A stretch of 36,805 bases of DNA from Treponema sp. (GTDB taxonomy: Bacteria; Spirochaetota; Spirochaetia; Treponematales; Breznakiellaceae): contig JAITQK010000207.1 of assembly GCA_031288975.1 (NCBI GenBank), positions 1-36,805 on the forward strand, in the 5' to 3' direction. The notes under the pieces are model-generated. The model saw only the letters and a program-made list of their open reading frames with translations, did not search any database and had not been told where the DNA came from. The stretch's first letter is position 1. Every line of letters begins with the position of its first letter. The position numbers and the translations under genes are program-made. This document shows, in pieces, positions 343 through 16,540 of the stretch.

Positions 343-1578
343 ATGTTAAAAGAAGCGAGTTTTGAATCTATTTTGCGGCTTGATTCTGAACTGAATCAGA
401 TTCAAGACCTTGATCTCCTGTTGGAACGTATCTTGTTGGAGGCCAGGCAGATTATTCGCGCCGACGCCGGTTCAATCTATGTAAAGGAAAATACTGAAGA
501 AAATATTGAAAAACTGGTCATCAAATATGCCCAGAATGATACTTTACAACAACGGCTCCCACCAGGCCAAAAGCTGATTTATTCAATTTTTTCGCTTGCT
601 ATAGATGATAAAACAATTTCCGGTTACTGTGCCCTCACCAGGACCCTGGTCAATGTGTCGGATGTCTATCATATCAAACCAGATGCTCCTTATTCGTATA
701 ACACATCCTTCGATACGATAGCAGGGTATAAAACCACCTCCATCCTGTCGGTTCCCTTGAAAACAGCGGAAGGCAAACTGCTGGGGGTTATCCAGATCAT
801 CAACGCCATGGATGAGGAGGGGCATACGATACCCTTTTCCAAGGACGCTGAATTTGTGATCACCCATTTTGCCGCCAATGCTACTATGGTACTCCAGCGG
901 GCCTATAATACCCGGTCTATGATACTCCGCATGGTCAAGATGTCTGAACTGCGGGACCCCAAGGAAACCGGTTCCCACGCAAACCGGGTCGCCGGTTACG
1001 CAATCGAAATTTACGACCGATGGGCATTCCATCATGGGGTACCGGGAGTGGAACGGGAGAAAATCAAGGATATGTTTAAAATCGCCGCCATGCTCCATGA
1101 TGTGGGAAAGGTGGCAATTTCCGACTTGATTTTAAAGAAACCCAGCCGGTTTACCCCTGAAGAATTTGGGATTATGCAGCACCATACGATATACGGAGCA
1201 GGTTTGTTTAATGATCCCCAGTCGCCCCTGGATCTGATTGCCCGGGATGTGGCCCTGAACCACCATGAGAATTGGGATGGTTCAGGCTATCCCGGCTGGT
1301 ATGATCCGATTACCAAAGTGTCCCTTAAAACGGATCAGGATGGGAAGCCCCTGGGCAAGAAAGGTGAAGAGATCCCCTTATGGGGGCGTATCGTCGCCAT
1401 TGCCGATGTCTTTGATGCCCTCTGTTCTAAGCGGGTGTATAAAGACCCCTGGACCCAGGAAGAGGTGTTAGCGGAAATCCATCGACAGTCAGGTATTAAA
1501 TTCGAGCCTGAACTGGTGGATATTTTCTTTGAGATTCTTCCCCGGATCAAACAGATACAGAGCCTCTATCCTGAGTGA
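343..1578 (+). CDS. GAF domain / HD-GYP domain protein, probable cyclic-di-GMP phosphodiesterase
   Basis: 411 residues. Residues about 15-190 form a GAF-type sensor domain (LERILLEARQIIRADAGSIY, later SVPLKTAEGKLLGVIQIIN). Residues about 200-405 form an HD-GYP domain with the HD pair at 252-253 (MLHDVGK), a downstream HH pair, and the diagnostic GYP at 315-317 within NHHENWDGSGYPG. HD-GYP proteins usually hydrolyse cyclic-di-GMP, here presumably under control of a ligand bound by the GAF domain. No signal peptide or membrane segment is visible, so it should be cytoplasmic. The ATG at 343 is the only reasonable in-frame start, but the nearest purine-rich site (AAGGA, 325-329) lies unusually far upstream. 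The 3' end overlaps the convergent yaiI-like gene by 32 bases. An insert of about 20 residues follows the GYP motif. Confidence 0.9.
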   Translation: MLKEASFESILRLDSELNQIQDLDLLLERILLEARQIIRADAGSIYVKENTEENIEKLVIKYAQNDTLQQRLPPGQKLIYSIFSLAIDDKTISGYCALTRTLVNVSDVYHIKPDAPYSYNTSFDTIAGYKTTSILSVPLKTAEGKLLGVIQIINAMDEEGHTIPFSKDAEFVITHFAANATMVLQRAYNTRSMILRMVKMSELRDPKETGSHANRVAGYAIEIYDRWAFHHGVPGVEREKIKDMFKIAAMLHDVGKVAISDLILKKPSRFTPEEFGIMQHHTIYGAGLFNDPQSPLDLIARDVALNHHENWDGSGYPGWYDPITKVSLKTDQDGKPLGKKGEEIPLWGRIVAIADVFDALCSKRVYKDPWTQEEVLAEIHRQSGIKFEPELVDIFFEILPRIKQIQSLYPE

Positions 1579-2044
1579 GATCTGCGGGGAGCAGGGTTCC
1601 CCTGAGCTGGGTGAGGATGCGGTCGAAACTGTCAGCAAAGGCCTTGAGTTCCCGTTTACCGTAGCTTGTCCATCGTGTACTGCCAAGGCCGTTTTCCGCA
1701 AGGTCTACCATGAAATTTCTGAGGGAAAGCCGTTCCCGGATGTTTTCTTGGGTATAGATTCGTCCCCGGTCATCGAGAACCATGATTGACGCCTCCACCA
1801 GGCGGCTTGCCAGGGGTATGTCCCTGGTAACGACCAGGTCTCCGGGGCAGGCTAACTCAACGATGCGGTTATCCGCCGACCCTTCTCCTGGGGGACAGAG
1901 TTCCATCACCGCCGTTTCCCCTGCTATGTCGGGAATAGGGCGATTCGCCGCAAAAACCGCCTGGATGCCGGTCCGTGCGGAAGCCCGCAGTACTGCTTCC
2001 CGGACGAGCCGGGGACAGGAGTCTGCGTCTACCAGGATTTTCAT
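1547..2044 (-). CDS. YaiI/YqxD family (DUF188) protein
   Basis: 165 residues beginning MKILVDADSCPRLVREAV, the hallmark N-terminus of the UPF0178/DUF188 family. The later blocks DLVVTRDIPLASRLVEA and VLDDRGRIYTQENI are also typical. The fold is PIN-like with conserved acidic residues, so a nuclease function has been suspected for the family, but no activity is established and none is claimed here. The start overlaps the manA stop by four bases (ATGA), so it is translationally coupled as the last gene of the infC operon. Its 3' end runs 32 bases into the convergent HD-GYP gene. It is soluble, with no signal peptide or membrane segment. Confidence 0.88.
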   Translation of the reverse strand: MKILVDADSCPRLVREAVLRASARTGIQAVFAANRPIPDIAGETAVMELCPPGEGSADNRIVELACPGDLVVTRDIPLASRLVEASIMVLDDRGRIYTQENIRERLSLRNFMVDLAENGLGSTRWTSYGKRELKAFADSFDRILTQLRGTLLPADLTQDRGSVSV

Positions 2045-3273
2045 GGGGAATCCCCGCTTGCTGTTGAACCAATGCCCGCGGCGTAAAGGGTGTAGGTTCC
2101 CGTGAATGAGCGGTTTTCAGCTCCATCCCCAGCGGAGATAAAGGCGCTCTCCCCCTGTTCTAGTATGAGATCCGGGGTATTACGTCCCGATATGGTGAGC
2201 CGCCCTTCGGTTACGAGCACAATGGAAGGACCGGTTTCAGGAAAGGATAGGGTGTCCCCAGGGCACCGCATCCGGGAAAGGGAGAATTCCCTGCATGGGG
2301 TAGGGTATCTGAAAAAGGATGCCTGGGGATCAGGGGGTTTCAGGATCTCTGGCTTCAAGACAGAACAGTGTAATATACTTAAGAGTTCCGCCACATCCAC
2401 GTGCTTGGTGGTCAAGCCGCCTCGGAGTACATTATCTGAGTTGGCCATAAGCTCCACTCCAAACCCGTGAATATAGGCATGGAGCACCCCAGCGGGAAGA
2501 TACACCCCTTCCCCCGGCTCAAGCTCCATCAGGTTGAGATACAGGGGAGCAATCACCGCCGGGTCCCCAGGGTACTGTTCCGCAAAAGCGGCAGATTGTT
2601 TCCAGATGGCTTTCCTTTCCGGGTGTTTTTCCGAAAGAACCGATCCCTGTTGTATGGTGTATTCGCTCAATCCTTGTCGCAACTCCGGGGACAGGTCAAA
2701 GAGGGCCTTGAGGAACCCCCCAAGGCGCTCCTGATCTGAAGCCCCCTGGAGGGTAAGTGCCAGAGACGCAAGACCACGCTTGAGCGGTTCCGGTGCAGCC
2801 TGGGAAAAAACCGCAAGCCCCTCCCTGATTTCCCCAGGCTCCCGGAAGCCGCAGAGGGCCTTGAAGGGAGTGAGGGCACAGAGTATCTCCGGTTTATGAT
2901 TCGGGTCTTTGTAGTTCCGGTTTGGCGCCTTGAGAGGGATGCCTTCCCGGTTTTCCCGTTCCCAGCCTGAACGCGCCTGGATTAAACTGGGGTGGGCCTG
3001 AATTGACAGGGGCCTTTCTGCGGCAAGCAGTTTGAAGAGAAAGGGAAGGGTCCCAAAGCATTCGGCAACTGTGGCCCCCACATAGGAGACAGGGTCCTGG
3101 TTGATCAGCGCCGAAAGGGTACCCTCCTCCGTTTCCGAAGGCCCCTCTGGATGGATACCCATCCATACTTCCGCCCAGGGCCTTCCATCGGGATTTACCT
3201 GACCCATGAACTGCGGTATCCATTCCGGGGAACCCCAGGCATAATGCTTGATTGGGTTTTTGAGGCGTTTCAT
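2041..3273 (-). CDS. manA: Mannose-6-phosphate isomerase, class I
   Basis: 410 residues. The enzyme interconverts fructose-6-phosphate and mannose-6-phosphate in the cytoplasm. Zinc-site motifs are present: the QAHPS block after LLAAERPLSI, DPNHKPEILCAL with H and E ligands, and LPAGVLHAYIHG with the second histidine. The C-terminal cupin-like part (ILEQGESAFISAGDG) is complete and the length is normal for the family. The start overlaps the zapA-like stop by four bases, and the downstream yaiI-like start overlaps this stop in the same way, so all three are probably on one mRNA. A sugar isomerase at the tail of a translation and cell-division operon is an odd but plausible arrangement. Confidence 0.93.
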   Translation of the reverse strand: MKRLKNPIKHYAWGSPEWIPQFMGQVNPDGRPWAEVWMGIHPEGPSETEEGTLSALINQDPVSYVGATVAECFGTLPFLFKLLAAERPLSIQAHPSLIQARSGWERENREGIPLKAPNRNYKDPNHKPEILCALTPFKALCGFREPGEIREGLAVFSQAAPEPLKRGLASLALTLQGASDQERLGGFLKALFDLSPELRQGLSEYTIQQGSVLSEKHPERKAIWKQSAAFAEQYPGDPAVIAPLYLNLMELEPGEGVYLPAGVLHAYIHGFGVELMANSDNVLRGGLTTKHVDVAELLSILHCSVLKPEILKPPDPQASFFRYPTPCREFSLSRMRCPGDTLSFPETGPSIVLVTEGRLTISGRNTPDLILEQGESAFISAGDGAENRSFTGTYTLYAAGIGSTASGDSP

Positions 3274-5342: not shown

Positions 5343-7835
5343 ATGTGGGGTGTTGTCATAAGGCTCAAAAGTACGGTGAAGTTCCCGGTGAAACGGCTGT
5401 CTAGCCTACTGTGGGCAGGGTTATTGTATGTTGGCGTGGTTTCTTATGGGCCGGCCCAAGAGGTGGAAGTGTTTCCCCAAATAGGGCATAGCGGATGGGT
5501 AACCAGCGCTGCTTACAGTCCAGATGGACGGCGGATTGTTTCTGGATCCGTGGATAATACGGTCAAGATATGGGATGCAGAGAGTGGCCGGGAACTGCGG
5601 ACCTTCGCGGGGCATAGTGATTGGGTTAATGCGGTTATGTATAGCCCGGATGGACGGTTTATTGTTTCCGCTTCTTCGGATAATACCATCAAGGTATGGG
5701 ATGCGGAGCGGGATGCGCCCCGGACCTTTGCGGGCCATACTAAGGCGGTAAACGCGGTGGCTTACAGTCCTGATGGCCGCTGGGTTGTTTCCGGTTCTCA
5801 TGATAAGACCATCAGGATATGGGATGTCGAAAGCGGCCGGGAACTGCGGACCCTCCTGGGCCATACCGGCGGGATAGTTGCGGTGGCTTATAGCCCTGAT
5901 GGGACGCGGATCGTCTCAGGTTCGGTGGATCATACTATCAAGGTATGGGACGCGGTAAGTGGCCAGGAACTGGGAACCTTGTCCGGACATACCAAGGAGG
6001 TAAACTCCGTGGCCTATAGTCCTAATGGGAAGTGGATCGTCTCCGGTGCTGCGGATAATACGGTCAAGGTTTGGGATACGGAGCTGGGAGTATCCAAGAC
6101 CTTGACCGGACATACCAATAGCGTCAGTTTTGTCAGGTACAGCCCGGATGGGAAGTGGATCATCTCTGGCTCCGGGGATAATACGATCAAGGTCTGGAAC
6201 GTGGAGAGCGGATCATCCCGGACCTTGGCGGGCCATGTATCCCTGGTAAGCACGGTGGGGTACAGCCCGGACGGACGGCGGATCGTCTCTGGTTCACGGG
6301 ATAATACGCTCAGAATATGGGATCTGGAGCGCGGGCCTTTGCAGACCCTGGGGGGGCATACGGGCTGGGTCAGTTCAGTGGCCTATAGCCCTGATGGGCG
6401 CTGGGTTGTTTCTGGGTCAGTGGACAGTACCGTTAAGATATGGGATGTGGAGCAAGGATCCTCCCGGACCCTGGGAGGGCATACGCAGTCGGTATACGCC
6501 GTTGCCTATAGCCCTGATGGGCAGTGGATCGTCTCTGGCTCTGCGGATAATACCCTCAAGATATGGAATGTGGAGCGCGGATCCCCTTGGACCCTGGTGG
6601 GCCATACGGGCTGGGTCAGTTCGGTGACCTACAGCCCCGATGGGCGGCGCATCGTCTCTGGTTCTGGGGATAATACCATCAAGGTCTGGGACGCGGCAAA
6701 TGGCCAGGAACTGCGGACCCTGGCAGGCCATACGGGCTGGGTCAGTTCGGTGGCCTACAGTCCTGATGGGCGGCGGATCGTCTCTGGTTCACGGGATAGG
6801 ACCATCAAGGTCTGGGATGCGGAGAGCGGCCAGGAACTGCGAACCTTGACCGGCCATACTAAGGGTGTAAACTCCGTGGCCTATAGTCCTGATGGGAAGT
6901 GGATCGTTTCTGGTTCCGGGGATAACGCCATTAAGATATGGAACGCCGAGAGTGGGCAGGAATTGCGGACTCCCCTTTCAGGGTACACGGACCTGATAAG
7001 CTCTGTGGTGTACAGCCCGGACGGGCAGCGCCTAGTCACCGGTTCTGGATATACTAATACCCTTAAGGTGTGGGACCTCGATAGCGGGAAGGAACTCAAG
7101 ACCCTTACCGGGCATACCTGGAATGTAAACTCCGTGGCCTACAGTCCCGATGGCCGGCGGATCGTCTCTGGTTCCTGGGATGGTTCGATCAGGATCTGGG
7201 ATGGAGACAGCGGTACTGAGCTGCTGCGCTGTATTGCCTTTATTGGTGATGGTGAATGGGTCTGCATTACCCCAGAGGGCTACTATAACGCATCTCCCAA
7301 GGGGGATGAGCACCTCAATGTCCGGCGGGGGAATATGGTGTATTCTATAGATCAATACCGTTCTATCTATTATAAGCCTGAGTTGATTGCCACCTCTGTG
7401 GCGGGGAATACCCCTGCCCGTCCTGCTATCGAAATCGACGTCCCTACCGATGCCGCTTTTGCTCCGCCGGTGGTGGTTATCCGCAGCCCTGAACACAAAA
7501 GCACCCTTCCGCCAGGAGTGGGGCGGGTTTCTGTGGCAGTTATCGACAAAAAGCAGGGGCTTACGAACATTAAGGTGCTGGTGAATGGAAAGGTCATCAG
7601 GACTGAAACTATTGCGGTACCTGCCGAATCTGAGACCGGAGAGCGAGAACAGCGGATGGACTTTGTTTTTCCGATTACCTTTGCCCTGGGAATGAGCCAT
7701 ATTGAAGTGCGGGCAACCAATGAGTATGCCGAGGGGCGGGACAGTGTGGATGTTACCATTGATTCCAATGCGGACCCTGCGATAGACCCTTCACTCAAGA
7801 GTGATAGTATATTATACGAGCGTGTTTCACCATAA
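5343..7835 (+). CDS. Exported protein with 14 WD40 repeats and a C-terminal Ig-like region
   Basis: 830 residues. The start at 5343 has a good ribosome site (GATGGAGG). A basic stretch and hydrophobic segment (RLSSLLWAGLLYVGVVSYGPAQ) form a probable signal peptide, so the protein is likely exported. From about residue 48 to 630 there are 14 WD40 units of 41-43 residues. Each has GH near the start, a YSPDG turn, a SGS.D segment and a WD or WN end, which suits two seven-bladed propellers. Next come a conserved DGEWVCITPEGYYNASPKG stretch, a YSIDQYRSIYYKPELI block, and an Ig-like strand region (VSVAVIDKKQGLTNIKVLVNG). In relatives known to me this architecture often continues into a caspase-like (C14) domain, but here the protein stops. 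Such propellers are binding scaffolds; the ligand is unknown. cobT-like starts 9 bases after the stop. Confidence 0.85.
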   Translation: MWGVVIRLKSTVKFPVKRLSSLLWAGLLYVGVVSYGPAQEVEVFPQIGHSGWVTSAAYSPDGRRIVSGSVDNTVKIWDAESGRELRTFAGHSDWVNAVMYSPDGRFIVSASSDNTIKVWDAERDAPRTFAGHTKAVNAVAYSPDGRWVVSGSHDKTIRIWDVESGRELRTLLGHTGGIVAVAYSPDGTRIVSGSVDHTIKVWDAVSGQELGTLSGHTKEVNSVAYSPNGKWIVSGAADNTVKVWDTELGVSKTLTGHTNSVSFVRYSPDGKWIISGSGDNTIKVWNVESGSSRTLAGHVSLVSTVGYSPDGRRIVSGSRDNTLRIWDLERGPLQTLGGHTGWVSSVAYSPDGRWVVSGSVDSTVKIWDVEQGSSRTLGGHTQSVYAVAYSPDGQWIVSGSADNTLKIWNVERGSPWTLVGHTGWVSSVTYSPDGRRIVSGSGDNTIKVWDAANGQELRTLAGHTGWVSSVAYSPDGRRIVSGSRDRTIKVWDAESGQELRTLTGHTKGVNSVAYSPDGKWIVSGSGDNAIKIWNAESGQELRTPLSGYTDLISSVVYSPDGQRLVTGSGYTNTLKVWDLDSGKELKTLTGHTWNVNSVAYSPDGRRIVSGSWDGSIRIWDGDSGTELLRCIAFIGDGEWVCITPEGYYNASPKGDEHLNVRRGNMVYSIDQYRSIYYKPELIATSVAGNTPARPAIEIDVPTDAAFAPPVVVIRSPEHKSTLPPGVGRVSVAVIDKKQGLTNIKVLVNGKVIRTETIAVPAESETGEREQRMDFVFPITFALGMSHIEVRATNEYAEGRDSVDVTIDSNADPAIDPSLKSDSILYERVSP
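5484..7232 (+). repeat. Tandem array of 14 WD40-encoding units of about 123-129 bp
   Basis: The coding sequence consists of 14 consecutive units. Many share long near-identical stretches, for example the units starting near 6358, 6598 and 6727 all encode GHTGWVSSV followed by YSPDGR. DNA-level similarity this strong implies recent unit duplication or gene conversion, so the copy number may vary between strains. Confidence 0.85.
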
Positions 7836-9601: not shown

Positions 9602-12151
9602 ATGGTAATGGCTGAAAGTATCTCCCTTGATCAGGACGTATCAAAGCTTCCTTGGTTTCCTGAATATGGTGATCCAATAGAGGTGCTTAATCTATCGGTT
9701 CGTTCTACCAATGCCCTTATTCGGGCGGGGATTACCACGGTTGACAGGCTGTTGAATACGGACAAGAAAATTCTGTGCGATATTAGAAATTTAGGGGAAA
9801 AAAGCATTGCAGAAATCCTGGGGTGTCAAGAAAAACTTGTCAAGGCCCTGGCGGCGATTGATGCTCATAGCCCTGATAATCTCGCGAAAAATCGTGAGCG
9901 CTTAGAAAAACTGAAAAGCGCCTTTGCGGACATACCTGCGCAGCGGATGAATCACTCCCTTCACCGGTATTTGGCTTCATGTGCTGGGGAAGATATTATC
10001 GGTATTCTTGAGGAATTTAATGAATTATTAGCGCCGCTTACAACAATCGCTGAACTCCCGTCGGTATTTGAAAGTATTTGCACCAGCAATCGATCAACGG
10101 ATCGCTTCTTGTCTATACTCAGCATCTTATCTATTAATATGTCTTCAATGATTCAAGATATATTTAATACGGTCTATAGTGATTCCAGGAATAAGCGTGC
10201 GTACCTTGTGTTGTGTCAGCGTTCTGGAGGGATGACGCTTCAGGAAATCGCAGAAAAAATGGGAATAACCAGGTCCCGGGTACAGCAAATTGAAACCAAA
10301 GGATTGGATAAGCTGCTCAAGTATCTGGGTAATATAACGGTTGATTTCTTTTTGTTTATCAGTGCGGAACATAACGGTGATTATATCATAACCGTATCGG
10401 AACTGTGTGGTTATTTAGGTAAGTTTGAGTACATGAATCTGTTTCTCTATGTGGCAAAAATGACCTCTATGGGGAATACCTTCATCTATAACAGGGACCT
10501 GGGTGCGTTTTGCTATAAAGGGGCTGTACACAATTTTGAGCATCTCAAAGAAGTGGTAAAAAACCTGCCTTTTATCATTAACAAAGAAAAAAAAGATATG
10601 TTCCTCGCCGATATAAGTAAGGCTCATGAGCTCCCGTTAAAGGCAGTTGCTATTGAGTTTTATTATACCTACCGGTTAACGGGGAGCGTCTACTATCGGG
10701 GAAAGTTGATCTTAACCCAGGTATACGATTATATTTTAGATACCTATTACCCATCAGGCATCAAATTGTATGATGATGGTACGATAAACTCTTTTCGTAA
10801 AAAAGTTACTGAGATTTTCGGCGATATAGACCTGCCGGTAAATAACCGGGCGATTGACGCACGCCTGGGTGATATTGCGATACTATGTGAGCAGGGGACG
10901 TATATCCACCCCCATCATATTCAGATTGAGCGCGCCTTAATTGATGAGGTTTGTGTCTATATTATGAATTCCGGGCGGGTTGCCTTTTCGTTTAATGAAT
11001 TGTTTGAAACCTTTAAAGACAAACTGCTTGTGGAGAGCAATGTTCATAATAAATACTTTTTTCAAGGGGTACTTAAATATTATCTGAGTGATAAGTTCTT
11101 TTTCACCAGGGGTGTTATTGCAAAAGAGGAAGGAGCAGACATTATCGAAGACTTGGAAACGCTTATCCGGGAACGGGGGGAGATTCATAAGTCTGAGATT
11201 TTCGTGGAATACCCTGGGATTACGGATATCATGTTTATCATGAGAATAAACGCCAATAAAAACATCATATCCATCGGTAATGGTTCCTATATGCATGTGA
11301 ATAAACTGAAAATCATGCCCCGGGATTATCATATCAGAGAGGTACTGGAACAGCAGACCAAAAAGTTGCCGGTATCCTCGCGGAAAGTCCTGGAACTCTT
11401 AAAGGTATCATCCCCTCGATTTTTAACCCGTAATGATATAACGCATCACGAAAAATTGTTCGGGATTCTCAAGTATATGTTCGATACCGAATTTATCTTC
11501 TCCCGTCCTTATATTGCCAAATTAGGAACCGAAGAGATTTCTAATATTAACATCATTAAACAGTATCTTAAATCTTACGATTCAATAACCCTGGCGGATC
11601 TCACCCATTTATGTAATGAGCAGCGGGTGCGTTTCTTTTCACCTAAGATATTGATTAAAGACTTGAATGACGAATTCTTACGCATTGATAGTGAAACACT
11701 GGTACGCAGTGTGTTTAAACCTGATGAAGAGATCATTACCGAGATAGGCCGTATACTGCTTGAACGGATGAAGGTCAAGGGCTATCTGGTGGCGTCAACT
11801 ATTGGAGATTATATTGTATTTCCCCATATTCCCTTTCAGTGGAACGCTTTTGTGCTGAGGAGTTTGGTCGAAAAATACATGCATGATTTGATACACATCG
11901 TTGATATTCCTACTACCGATATCTATGCGATAAGTACTATTTTTGTTGACCCCATTCTTAAGGTCGAGAACTACGAGGCTTTGATTCAGTATATTCTTAA
12001 GACTGAACATACTAAGGCGCCTTTTAAGATCATCCGTAATGCGGTTGATTGGCTTCGCCAAGAGGGATTATTTATCGGTAATCCTCCTAAGTGCTTACTG
12101 GATGGCAGCATTATCTGTCTTGACAAATTTGGAAAAATAATAGTAAAGTAA
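9602..12151 (+). CDS. RNA polymerase alpha-CTD / sigma-70 region-4-like fusion protein, unknown function
   Basis: 849 residues. Residues about 23-75 match the RpoA C-terminal domain: EVLNLSVRSTNALIRAGITT and IRNLGEKSIAEI carry the helix-hairpin-helix signature that binds UP-element DNA and activators. Residues about 205-240 (GGMTLQEIAEKMGITRSRVQ followed by QIETKGLDKL) match sigma-70 region 4.2, which reads -35 DNA. The remaining 600 residues have no domain I recognise. They look mixed alpha/beta with several short helix-rich modules, resembling repeated winged helices. There is no signal peptide or membrane segment. It has no RpoA assembly domain and no sigma region 2, so it is neither a subunit nor a working sigma factor. 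The ATG at 9608 fits the AGAGGA site slightly better than that at 9602. It might redirect RNA polymerase or bind DNA alone. Confidence 0.85.
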   Translation: MVMAESISLDQDVSKLPWFPEYGDPIEVLNLSVRSTNALIRAGITTVDRLLNTDKKILCDIRNLGEKSIAEILGCQEKLVKALAAIDAHSPDNLAKNRERLEKLKSAFADIPAQRMNHSLHRYLASCAGEDIIGILEEFNELLAPLTTIAELPSVFESICTSNRSTDRFLSILSILSINMSSMIQDIFNTVYSDSRNKRAYLVLCQRSGGMTLQEIAEKMGITRSRVQQIETKGLDKLLKYLGNITVDFFLFISAEHNGDYIITVSELCGYLGKFEYMNLFLYVAKMTSMGNTFIYNRDLGAFCYKGAVHNFEHLKEVVKNLPFIINKEKKDMFLADISKAHELPLKAVAIEFYYTYRLTGSVYYRGKLILTQVYDYILDTYYPSGIKLYDDGTINSFRKKVTEIFGDIDLPVNNRAIDARLGDIAILCEQGTYIHPHHIQIERALIDEVCVYIMNSGRVAFSFNELFETFKDKLLVESNVHNKYFFQGVLKYYLSDKFFFTRGVIAKEEGADIIEDLETLIRERGEIHKSEIFVEYPGITDIMFIMRINANKNIISIGNGSYMHVNKLKIMPRDYHIREVLEQQTKKLPVSSRKVLELLKVSSPRFLTRNDITHHEKLFGILKYMFDTEFIFSRPYIAKLGTEEISNINIIKQYLKSYDSITLADLTHLCNEQRVRFFSPKILIKDLNDEFLRIDSETLVRSVFKPDEEIITEIGRILLERMKVKGYLVASTIGDYIVFPHIPFQWNAFVLRSLVEKYMHDLIHIVDIPTTDIYAISTIFVDPILKVENYEALIQYILKTEHTKAPFKIIRNAVDWLRQEGLFIGNPPKCLLDGSIICLDKFGKIIVK

Positions 12152-15046: not shown

Positions 15047-16540
15047 TTATATTTTTAACGCACTTAAAGACCTAATTGCTTCCTGGGCCATGCGGTCGCA
15101 GCGTTCGTTAAACGTATCCCCTGCATGACCTTTAACCCATTCCCAGGTAATGGGAAACGCCGTCGCCAGCGCGTCCAAACGTACCCACAGTTCCTTGTTT
15201 TTCACCGGCTGTTTACCAGTAGTCATCCAGGCTTTTTTCTTCCAGGCATGGATCCAGATACTGATCCCCTTTTGCACATATTGAGAATCAGTATAAACCG
15301 TTACATTCCCGGGGGATAGCTTTAACTCGACTAAGGTCTCCAGGGCGGCAATAACTGCCTGTAATTCCATGCGGTTATTGGTAGTGTACTTCTCGGCGCC
15401 CCATTTTTCAATAATGATAGTAGGCTTATCCTGAGGATCTTTATCTCCGATGATCACATAGGCCCAGCCCCCTGGCCCCGGATTACCCGCACAGCCACCG
15501 TCGGTGTATATCTTTATGTCCCCAGTTTCAGGTCTCGGTACATCCTTAAGGGGTGTGGCATGATCCTGGGCTATATCTTGAACCGCCTCATGATCCTTAA
15601 AAATCTGCGCTTTAAAGAATAAACCCGTTGGGGTTATTGCCAGGCCCCCGGCGGCAGTTTCCTTCAGGCTCCCCGGCATGGTATCCCCAATCTCTTTCAT
15701 GGCAGAGACCACCTCATCAAAGGGTATCACGCTCTGAATGCCGGCAAGGGTCAAATCAACCGCAAGCACCGCGTTTATCGCTACAAAGGCATTCCGCTTG
15801 ACACAGGGCACCTCCACCAGGCCGGCCACCGGATCACAGGCGAGACCCAGGGAATTTTTGAGGGAAAGGGCTGCTGCGGAAAAGCAGTCCCCCAGGCTCA
15901 ACCCTTCCAGGTACCCCAGGGCAGAGGCCGCCATGGCCCCGGCAGCGCCACATTCCGCCTGACAGCCCCCCTCAGAACCGGCCAGGGTTGCCCGCTGGGC
16001 AATGAGCACCCCTGCGAGGCTGGCGATTAAGAAGGCACCGCGTACCGGAGCGGGGAAAGGCTGCGAAGGAGTGGGAGGGAGGGGGAGTAAGGAGGAGGTG
16101 TTTGAAGGTGTTTTCCGTGCCGCCCTCGCGCCAGAGGCGTGACTGTCCCACCAGGCCCAAATGGTCCCTGGTACGATGCCGCTGGAGCCGGCAGTGGGGA
16201 AGGAAACGATCTTGCCACCGCAGGCGTTCACCTCATTGATGGACAGGGAATAGGCAATGATCCGGCGGCAAAAGGGATCCTGCATGAGTCCCCGGTCTGA
16301 GGCGGCAAAAGACACTGCCCCACCCTTGGTAAGACCGGAACGGGAATGTTGTGGGGTTTCAAGCCCCTTGATGAGGGATCTTCTGGTAACGGCGATACGC
16401 CGATCAAGCTCGGTAAGGATACGCGCTTCAGAAGTCCCGGAAATGAAGGCTTCCCGTTTAACCGCATAATCCTCGGCAGTAATGTGTTCAGCTTGCAGTA
16501 TGCCCTCAAGCTCAGAAAATGTGTGAAACCTGAATTTCAT
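15047..16540 (-). CDS. L-serine dehydratase alpha chain fused to ribonuclease HI
   Basis: 497 residues in one uninterrupted frame. Residues 1 to about 330 are the iron-sulfur L-serine dehydratase alpha domain (FPTAGSSGIVPG, GSEGGCQAECGAAGAMAA, LACDPVAGLVEVPCVKRNA), which deaminates serine to pyruvate with the beta subunit. Residues about 341-497 are a complete RNase HI: YTDGGCAGNPGPGGWAYVI, NNRMELQAVIAALE, VYTDSQYV, and VKGHAGDTFNERCDRMA supply all four acidic catalytic residues plus the histidine. The dehydratase part carries an extra stretch of about 20-25 residues rich in P, S and T after GTIWAWWDS, and has TAGSSG where relatives usually have TAGSCG. The start overlaps the beta-subunit stop by four bases. 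No stop or ribosome site separates the domains. Confidence 0.88.
   Translation of the reverse strand: MKFRFHTFSELEGILQAEHITAEDYAVKREAFISGTSEARILTELDRRIAVTRRSLIKGLETPQHSRSGLTKGGAVSFAASDRGLMQDPFCRRIIAYSLSINEVNACGGKIVSFPTAGSSGIVPGTIWAWWDSHASGARAARKTPSNTSSLLPLPPTPSQPFPAPVRGAFLIASLAGVLIAQRATLAGSEGGCQAECGAAGAMAASALGYLEGLSLGDCFSAAALSLKNSLGLACDPVAGLVEVPCVKRNAFVAINAVLAVDLTLAGIQSVIPFDEVVSAMKEIGDTMPGSLKETAAGGLAITPTGLFFKAQIFKDHEAVQDIAQDHATPLKDVPRPETGDIKIYTDGGCAGNPGPGGWAYVIIGDKDPQDKPTIIIEKWGAEKYTTNNRMELQAVIAALETLVELKLSPGNVTVYTDSQYVQKGISIWIHAWKKKAWMTTGKQPVKNKELWVRLDALATAFPITWEWVKGHAGDTFNERCDRMAQEAIRSLSALKI

What the first reader, a model, noticed from the sequence alone, without database searches (positions are those of the whole stretch)
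9602..12151. RNA polymerase mimic: alpha-CTD plus sigma region 4 on a 600-residue unknown body
One protein carries the DNA-reading domain of RpoA and the -35-reading helix-turn-helix of sigma-70, but neither the core assembly part nor sigma region 2. The C-terminal 600 residues match nothing I know. It has its own promoter. It could be a transcription modulator that occupies UP and -35 elements, a silencer, or the sensor of a defence system. This is my first candidate for an undescribed system.
Basis: partly seen in the sequence, partly recalled or inferred. Interest (0 to 1): 0.75.

Follow-up and report, generated by a model that had tools for sequence, protein, structure and literature searches.

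The report
Orphan BREX-related promoter-motif DNA-binding protein
A termite-gut spirochaete carries a large, foreign-looking DNA-binding protein built from two pieces of the transcription machinery joined to a body related to the first gene of an anti-phage (BREX type 4) operon, so it is probably a stray part of a bacterial immune system rather than a piece of RNA polymerase.

Summary
The 849-aa ORF (9602-12151 +) has an RNA polymerase alpha-CTD (54 bits) and sigma-70 region 4 (39 bits), both above Pfam cut-offs, with no alpha-NTD or sigma region 2. Residues ~362-760 are homologous to the unnamed protein encoded immediately upstream of brxP in spirochaetal Type-4 BREX operons: hhalign 98.3%, and a reciprocal whole-genome profile search of 294 genomes that returned only those BREX proteins and this family. 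One aCTD-sigma4 homologue itself sits in that slot upstream of brxP. The aCTD-HTH arrangement also recurs in PglW (BREX type 2). The family is patchy (18 of ~200 genomes of its family), usually 6-18 points lower in GC than its surroundings, under purifying selection and internally duplicated. Its neighbours vary and are mostly housekeeping. The window's genome (80% complete) shows no BrxP, PglZ, BrxC or BrxL. Best reading: an orphan, laterally acquired DNA-recognition protein of the BREX/PglW kind, using HhH(aCTD), sigma4-HTH and a repeated body to grip DNA. Promoter mimicry is possible but not demonstrated. Structure prediction failed (pLDDT 31 and 32), so the body's fold is unknown.

The parts
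9602..12151 (+). ORF of 849 aa (P0001); probable real start ATG 9608
   Evidence: intact in congeners at 94% and 64% identity; dN/dS 0.235 against the 94% homologue
9674..9820 (+). RNA polymerase alpha-CTD (HhH) domain, residues 25-73; keeps counterparts of E. coli R265, N294, K298 (R34, N63, K67)
   Evidence: Pfam PF03118 54.2 bits; whole-genome search 58.2 bits; residue table; roles of R265/N294/K298 in PMC7822876
9851..10141 (+). helical linker, residues 84-180, the fastest-evolving part (dN/dS 0.52)
10205..10315 (+). sigma-70 region 4 HTH, residues 202-238; recognition helix TRSRVQQ (TRERIRQ in most homologues)
   Evidence: Pfam PF04545 39.3 bits
10349..12148 (+). C-terminal body, residues 250-849
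   Evidence: no match in Pfam, NCBIfam, PADLOC, PHROGs or PDB
10715..11881 (+). residues 372-760: region homologous to the protein encoded upstream of brxP in spirochaetal Type-4 BREX
   Evidence: hmmsearch 62.8 bits; hhalign 98.3%, E 1.2e-14; whole-genome profile E 6.6e-17
10697..11551 (+). internal duplication: residues 366-512 and 510-650
   Evidence: hhalign of the two halves 95.8%, E 7.6e-9, 81 columns; other segment pairs below 1%
11744..12148 (+). C-terminal segment, residues 715-849 (conserved WN.FLLR)
   Evidence: alignments

Best explanation
The protein is a solitary, laterally acquired DNA-recognition protein of the BREX/PglW kind. It grips DNA with three parts: an aCTD helix-hairpin-helix (minor groove), a sigma4-type HTH (major groove), and a duplicated body of probable winged-HTH units. 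Relatives of the body are the product of the gene directly upstream of brxP in spirochaetal Type-4 BREX operons and there probably serve as the DNA-scanning or target-recognition subunit. In this genome the protein has no BREX partners in reach, so it most likely acts alone or with unlinked host factors, binding promoter-like or A/T-rich incoming DNA and either repressing it or serving as a DNA-binding sensor. Shown: the domains, the homology, the adjacency in relatives, the low GC, the purifying selection and the lack of detected BREX parts. Inferred: DNA binding, the winged-helix nature of the body, lateral acquisition (from GC and patchy spread), the role in scanning, and any defence activity.
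For: Domains. Body homology to the brxP-upstream proteins by hmmsearch against 132 control ORFs, by hhalign with reversed-profile controls all at or below 0.5%, and by a six-frame search of 294 genomes that returned only the BREX-4 proteins and seven proteins of this family, the window gene among them. Full Type-4 BREX operons with such a gene directly upstream of brxP in G532, G565, G142 and G112. An aCTD-sigma4 homologue directly upstream of brxP in G142:C340 (BrxP fragment 1.4e-91). Another subgroup beside a DUF2357/PD-(D/E)XK nuclease and AAA ATPase. Similar N-terminal architecture in PglW. GC 40.5% against 51.0% for the window, and the same deficit in most homologues. Patchy spread. Purifying selection, strongest in the aCTD (dN/dS 0.06) and the duplicated core (0.09). 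A single insert between housekeeping genes.
Against: The window's genome and nearly all carriers of the close relatives have no BrxP, PglZ or BrxC, and co-occurrence with BREX-4 is not significant (2 of 21 carriers against 1 of 58 non-carriers, Fisher p = 0.17). Neighbours are housekeeping genes, and the gene sits at one locus in the three congeners sampled, which also fits a domesticated regulator. No fold could be predicted. No function has been measured for any member.
Confidence: 0.5

Rival explanations
1. A promoter-occupying transcription regulator: aCTD on A/T-rich UP-like DNA and sigma4 on -35-like hexamers place the body over promoters, as a repressor or xenogeneic silencer, or as an activator that recruits RNA polymerase.
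For: aCTD keeps R265, N294 and K298 counterparts; sigma4 recognition helix TRERIRQ is conserved in most homologues; both domains score above the Pfam cut-offs; three congeners keep the gene in the same WD40-gene neighbourhood.
Against: In this genus the recognition helix is TRSRVQQ or TRQRICQ, so conserved positions are changed. Some relatives have two to four tandem aCTDs, unlike the geometry of RNA polymerase. The body is tied to BREX, not to known regulators.
Confidence: 0.25
2. A decayed remnant or domesticated leftover of a Type-4 BREX island, kept for an unrelated host role.
For: No BREX genes in the genome; body homologous to a BREX-4 operon gene; orphan position.
Against: The ORF is full length, intact and under purifying selection in the genus. 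Group A proteins form their own family spread across several genera, always solo, so a fresh remnant is unlikely.
Confidence: 0.15
3. Part of a phosphatase-linked signalling system: a HAD hydrolase is fused to the N terminus in one genus and encoded just upstream in the window.
For: Five genomes of genus g10 encode HAD-aCTD-sigma4-body fusions; a HAD gene lies 75 bp upstream in the window.
Against: The two HAD proteins look like different subfamilies (best BLAST E 5e-5, motif I DLDGT against DLFFT). In congener G001 the HAD gene is not adjacent, and group B and C relatives have none.
Confidence: 0.07

Closest known systems
Protein encoded immediately upstream of brxP in spirochaetal Type-4 BREX (unnamed; no Pfam or PADLOC model matched)
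   Same: Body residues ~362-760 are homologous (98.3%, E 1.2e-14); large protein of apparent DNA-binding kind.
   Different: Those proteins have no aCTD or sigma4 domain detected and sit in complete BREX operons; the window protein is an orphan.
PglW of Type-2 BREX
   Same: aCTD followed by HTH-type modules (PMC12839542); colinear NCBIfam match of residues 25-227 to model positions 799-989.
   Different: No NERD nuclease, no kinase, no inactive STAND domain; 20.9 bits against a cut-off of 990.
Enterococcus plasmid cassette: 'sigma factor-like helix-turn-helix DNA-binding protein' + unknown ~405-aa protein + DEAD/DEAH helicase
   Same: A sigma4 module on a long C-terminal body, with aCTDs in the chromosomal versions L109 and L110.
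   Different: Body not detectably homologous (hhalign 0.4%); has an operon partner helicase.
MzaA of the MZA anti-phage system
   Same: sigma4-like segment.
   Different: Match limited to about 60 residues and far below the cut-off (21 against 800 bits).

Membership tests
RNA polymerase alpha subunit | C-terminal domain (PF03118) | tested here: met
   54.2 bits; 58.2 bits in the whole-genome search
RNA polymerase alpha subunit | N-terminal assembly domain | tested here: not met
   no Pfam or NCBIfam alpha-NTD match; the genome's likely rpoA is elsewhere, G000:C245
Sigma-70 factor | region 4 HTH | tested here: met
   39.3 bits
Sigma-70 factor | region 2 (core binding and -10 recognition) | tested here: not met
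   no match
Type-4 BREX | BrxP, PglZ, BrxC and BrxL present with the gene | tested here: not met
   none in G000, 80% complete; congener G002 (90%) also has none
Type-4 BREX | homology to the gene immediately upstream of brxP in spirochaetes | tested here: met
Type-2 BREX PglW | NERD nuclease and Ser/Thr kinase domains | tested here: not met
   no Pfam match; below the NCBIfam cut-off
Type-2 BREX PglW | aCTD followed by HTH/wHTH modules | tested here: inconclusive
   aCTD and HTH present; the wHTH nature of the body is inferred only, structure prediction failed
MzaA | full-length NCBIfam match above cut-off 800 | tested here: not met
   21.4 bits
Anti-phage defence protein | protects a host against phage | not testable with these tools
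   needs an experiment

The most novel reading that the evidence does not exclude
A single-gene surveillance protein that reads the two upstream promoter signals of invading DNA (UP-like A/T tract by aCTD, -35-like hexamer by sigma4) and, through a body shared with an undescribed Type-4 BREX subunit, silences it or flags it. It would be a promoter-directed immune sensor that has become independent of BREX.
Probability: 0.15. Interest if true: 0.85.

Novelty: new variant of a known kind. Interest (0 to 1): 0.58.

Why it matters
It ties an unannotated, solo protein family of gut spirochaetes to an undescribed gene of Type-4 BREX that the defence library searched here does not model, and it shows the aCTD plus HTH arrangement known from PglW recurring outside Type-2 BREX. 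If the family reads promoter-type DNA, it would suggest that some bacterial immune proteins recognise invaders by their transcription signals, a testable idea about how BREX-like systems choose targets.

Tried and rejected
AlphaFold on the full protein with one 94% relative (pLDDT 30.9) and on residues 505-650 (pLDDT 32.2) gave nothing usable, so no fold search was run. The deeper alignment (loci from the genome search) was not handed to the structure tool because its stated rule does not list such loci. PDB search with the body profile: no hit up to E 10. No relative in viral contigs; in phage records only short aCTD or sigma4 matches by protein and no DNA match. Plasmid search with the protein: only short aCTD matches listed. 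Co-occurrence with Type-4 BREX is not significant, so a direct partnership in this genome is rejected on present evidence. A partnership with the upstream HAD gene was considered and rated low. Homology of the body to the Enterococcus/Firmicutes cassette body was tested and not found. First-stage promoter claim: not above chance.

Full report
What is there. The window comes from a MAG whose close relative is titled 'Treponema sp.' isolate Po218_bin31 (94% identical homologue, L033); that the host is a termite-gut spirochaete is inferred from that title. The ORF 9602-12151 (+) encodes 849 aa. Pfam places an RNA polymerase alpha-CTD at residues 25-73 (54.2 bits) and a sigma-70 region 4 at 202-238 (39.3 bits), both well above the curated cut-offs. 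Neither an alpha-NTD nor sigma region 2 is present; the genome's likely rpoA is elsewhere. Residues 250-849 match nothing in Pfam, NCBIfam, PADLOC, PHROGs or the PDB.

Is the gene real and kept. Congeners carry it at 94% and 64% identity. dN/dS is 0.235 against the 94% homologue, lowest in the aCTD (0.06) and in residues 366-650 (0.09), highest in the linker (0.52). GC is 40.5% against 51.0% for the window, and most homologues are 6 to 18 points lower in GC than their own surroundings; L069 is the exception, 39.5 against 40.1. The gene lies among unrelated housekeeping-type genes: WD40 protein, a CobT-like protein (by sequence; no Pfam match), HAD hydrolase, NUDIX.

Family. A profile search of 200 genomes of the same family found homologues in 18. 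Group A has long bodies (G000-G002, G011, G032, G054, G179, G181-G183, G185, later also G611). Group B is G003, G058, G142, G223, and group C is G123, G124, G138. Many have two aCTDs. In one genus (g10) a HAD hydrolase is fused in front. More distant solo members were found in another spirochaete family (L111 = G517, L122 = G565). Neighbours differ between genera and are mostly housekeeping genes, so there is no conserved operon partner for group A.

The body has relatives in Type-4 BREX. In G532 (L126) a 950-aa body homologue is the first gene of an operon followed by BrxP (1e-233), BrxC (7e-286), PglZ (2e-87) and BrxL (5e-102). The other three Type-4 BREX loci found by BrxP and PglZ searches of 80 genomes (G142:C276, G565:C35, G112:C296) likewise have a related protein directly upstream of brxP. 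In G142:C340 an aCTD-sigma4 protein of group B, interrupted by one in-frame stop, is directly upstream of a second brxP (1.4e-91). A profile of the upstream proteins matches the window protein at residues 372-760 with 62.8 bits; among 132 control ORFs only family members were significant. hhalign of body profiles gives 98.3%, E 1.2e-14 over 359 columns, while all reversed-profile controls stay at or below 0.5%. A whole-genome six-frame search of 294 genomes with that profile returned only two BREX-4 proteins and seven group A proteins, the window gene at E 6.6e-17. The upstream proteins have no significant Pfam match, the one scanned against PADLOC has none there either, and the Type-4 section of a recent BREX survey (PMC12839542) lists BrxC, PAPS reductase, DUF4007, BrxL, PglZ and cysteine desulfurase, not this protein. 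A Methanosphaera Type-4 locus on a plasmid has no such gene upstream of its brxP, so the component is not universal.

Other defence signs. Group C genes lie convergent to a DUF2357/PD-(D/E)XK nuclease gene (G123, G124), followed in G124 by an AAA ATPase gene. The aCTD plus HTH arrangement recurs in PglW, where the kinase is followed by an aCTD-like domain and three wHTH modules (PMC12839542). NCBIfam PglW matches the window protein weakly but colinearly over residues 25-227. In L109, L110 and on Enterococcus plasmids, related aCTD and/or sigma4 proteins head a three-gene cassette with a helicase, though their bodies are not detectably homologous to this one.

How it may work. The aCTD keeps R34, N63 and K67 (E. 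coli R265, N294, K298), residues that insert into the minor groove or hold the backbone of UP-element DNA, so DNA binding by this domain is likely. The sigma4 recognition helix is TRERIRQ in most relatives but TRSRVQQ here, so -35 recognition may be altered. The body contains a duplication, 366-512 against 510-650 (hhalign 95.8%), whose sequence pattern suggests tandem winged-HTH units. This is inference: AlphaFold gave pLDDT 31 and 32. The simplest reading is a multi-contact DNA-recognition protein, as the BrxA/DUF4007 and PglW DNA-binding modules are proposed to be.

Limits. The window's genome is 80% complete. BrxP, PglZ, BrxC and BrxL are absent from it and from G002 (90% complete), and co-occurrence with Type-4 BREX over 79 genomes is not significant (p = 0.17). 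So the protein is related to a BREX component but is not, on present evidence, part of a BREX system. No activity has been tested.

Verdict. Confirmed observation; interpretation partly supported; a new variant of a known kind (aCTD/HTH DNA-recognition proteins of BREX-like defence), orphaned in this genome, with an undescribed BREX-4 gene family as a by-product.

Noticed in passing
L126 7499-10351; L143 11491-13335 (-); L144 10201-12312 (-); L145 5450-6826: Unnamed protein family directly upstream of brxP in four of four spirochaetal Type-4 BREX operons found; no significant Pfam match, and no PADLOC match for the one scanned (L126).
   Followed up: yes
L006, L069, L070, L071, L074 (genus g10): HAD hydrolase (TIGR02253-like) fused in front of the aCTD-sigma4-body protein; motif I is DLFFT, lacking the second Asp of DxDGT phosphatases.
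   Followed up: partly
L114 8164-13859; L115 8197-13872; L109 2846-9000; L110 236-5000: Three-gene cassette: aCTD and/or sigma4 protein, unknown ~405-aa protein, DEAD/SNF2 helicase, on Enterococcus plasmids among IS elements and in other genomes of the phylum; possible undescribed defence system.
   Followed up: partly
L076 5236-12272; L077 1-3751: Group C aCTD-sigma4 gene convergent to a DUF2357/PD-(D/E)XK nuclease gene; an AAA ATPase gene follows in L076 (McrBC-like pair).
   Followed up: partly
L051 (G142:C340) 787-3165 (-): aCTD-sigma4 gene upstream of brxP is interrupted by one in-frame stop; BrxC in the genome's other BREX-4 locus (G142:C276) is split over two ORFs.
   Followed up: no
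G001:C53:830-2203: A BrxL-like gene (273 bits) without BrxP, BrxC or PglZ in a congener's genome.
   Followed up: no
window 15047-16540 (-): ORF of 497 aa that by eye looks like an L-serine dehydratase alpha chain fused to RNase HI.
   Followed up: no
window 5343-7835 (+): WD40-repeat protein (14 repeats) that lies upstream of the aCTD gene in all three sampled species of the genus, directly in G001.
   Followed up: partly
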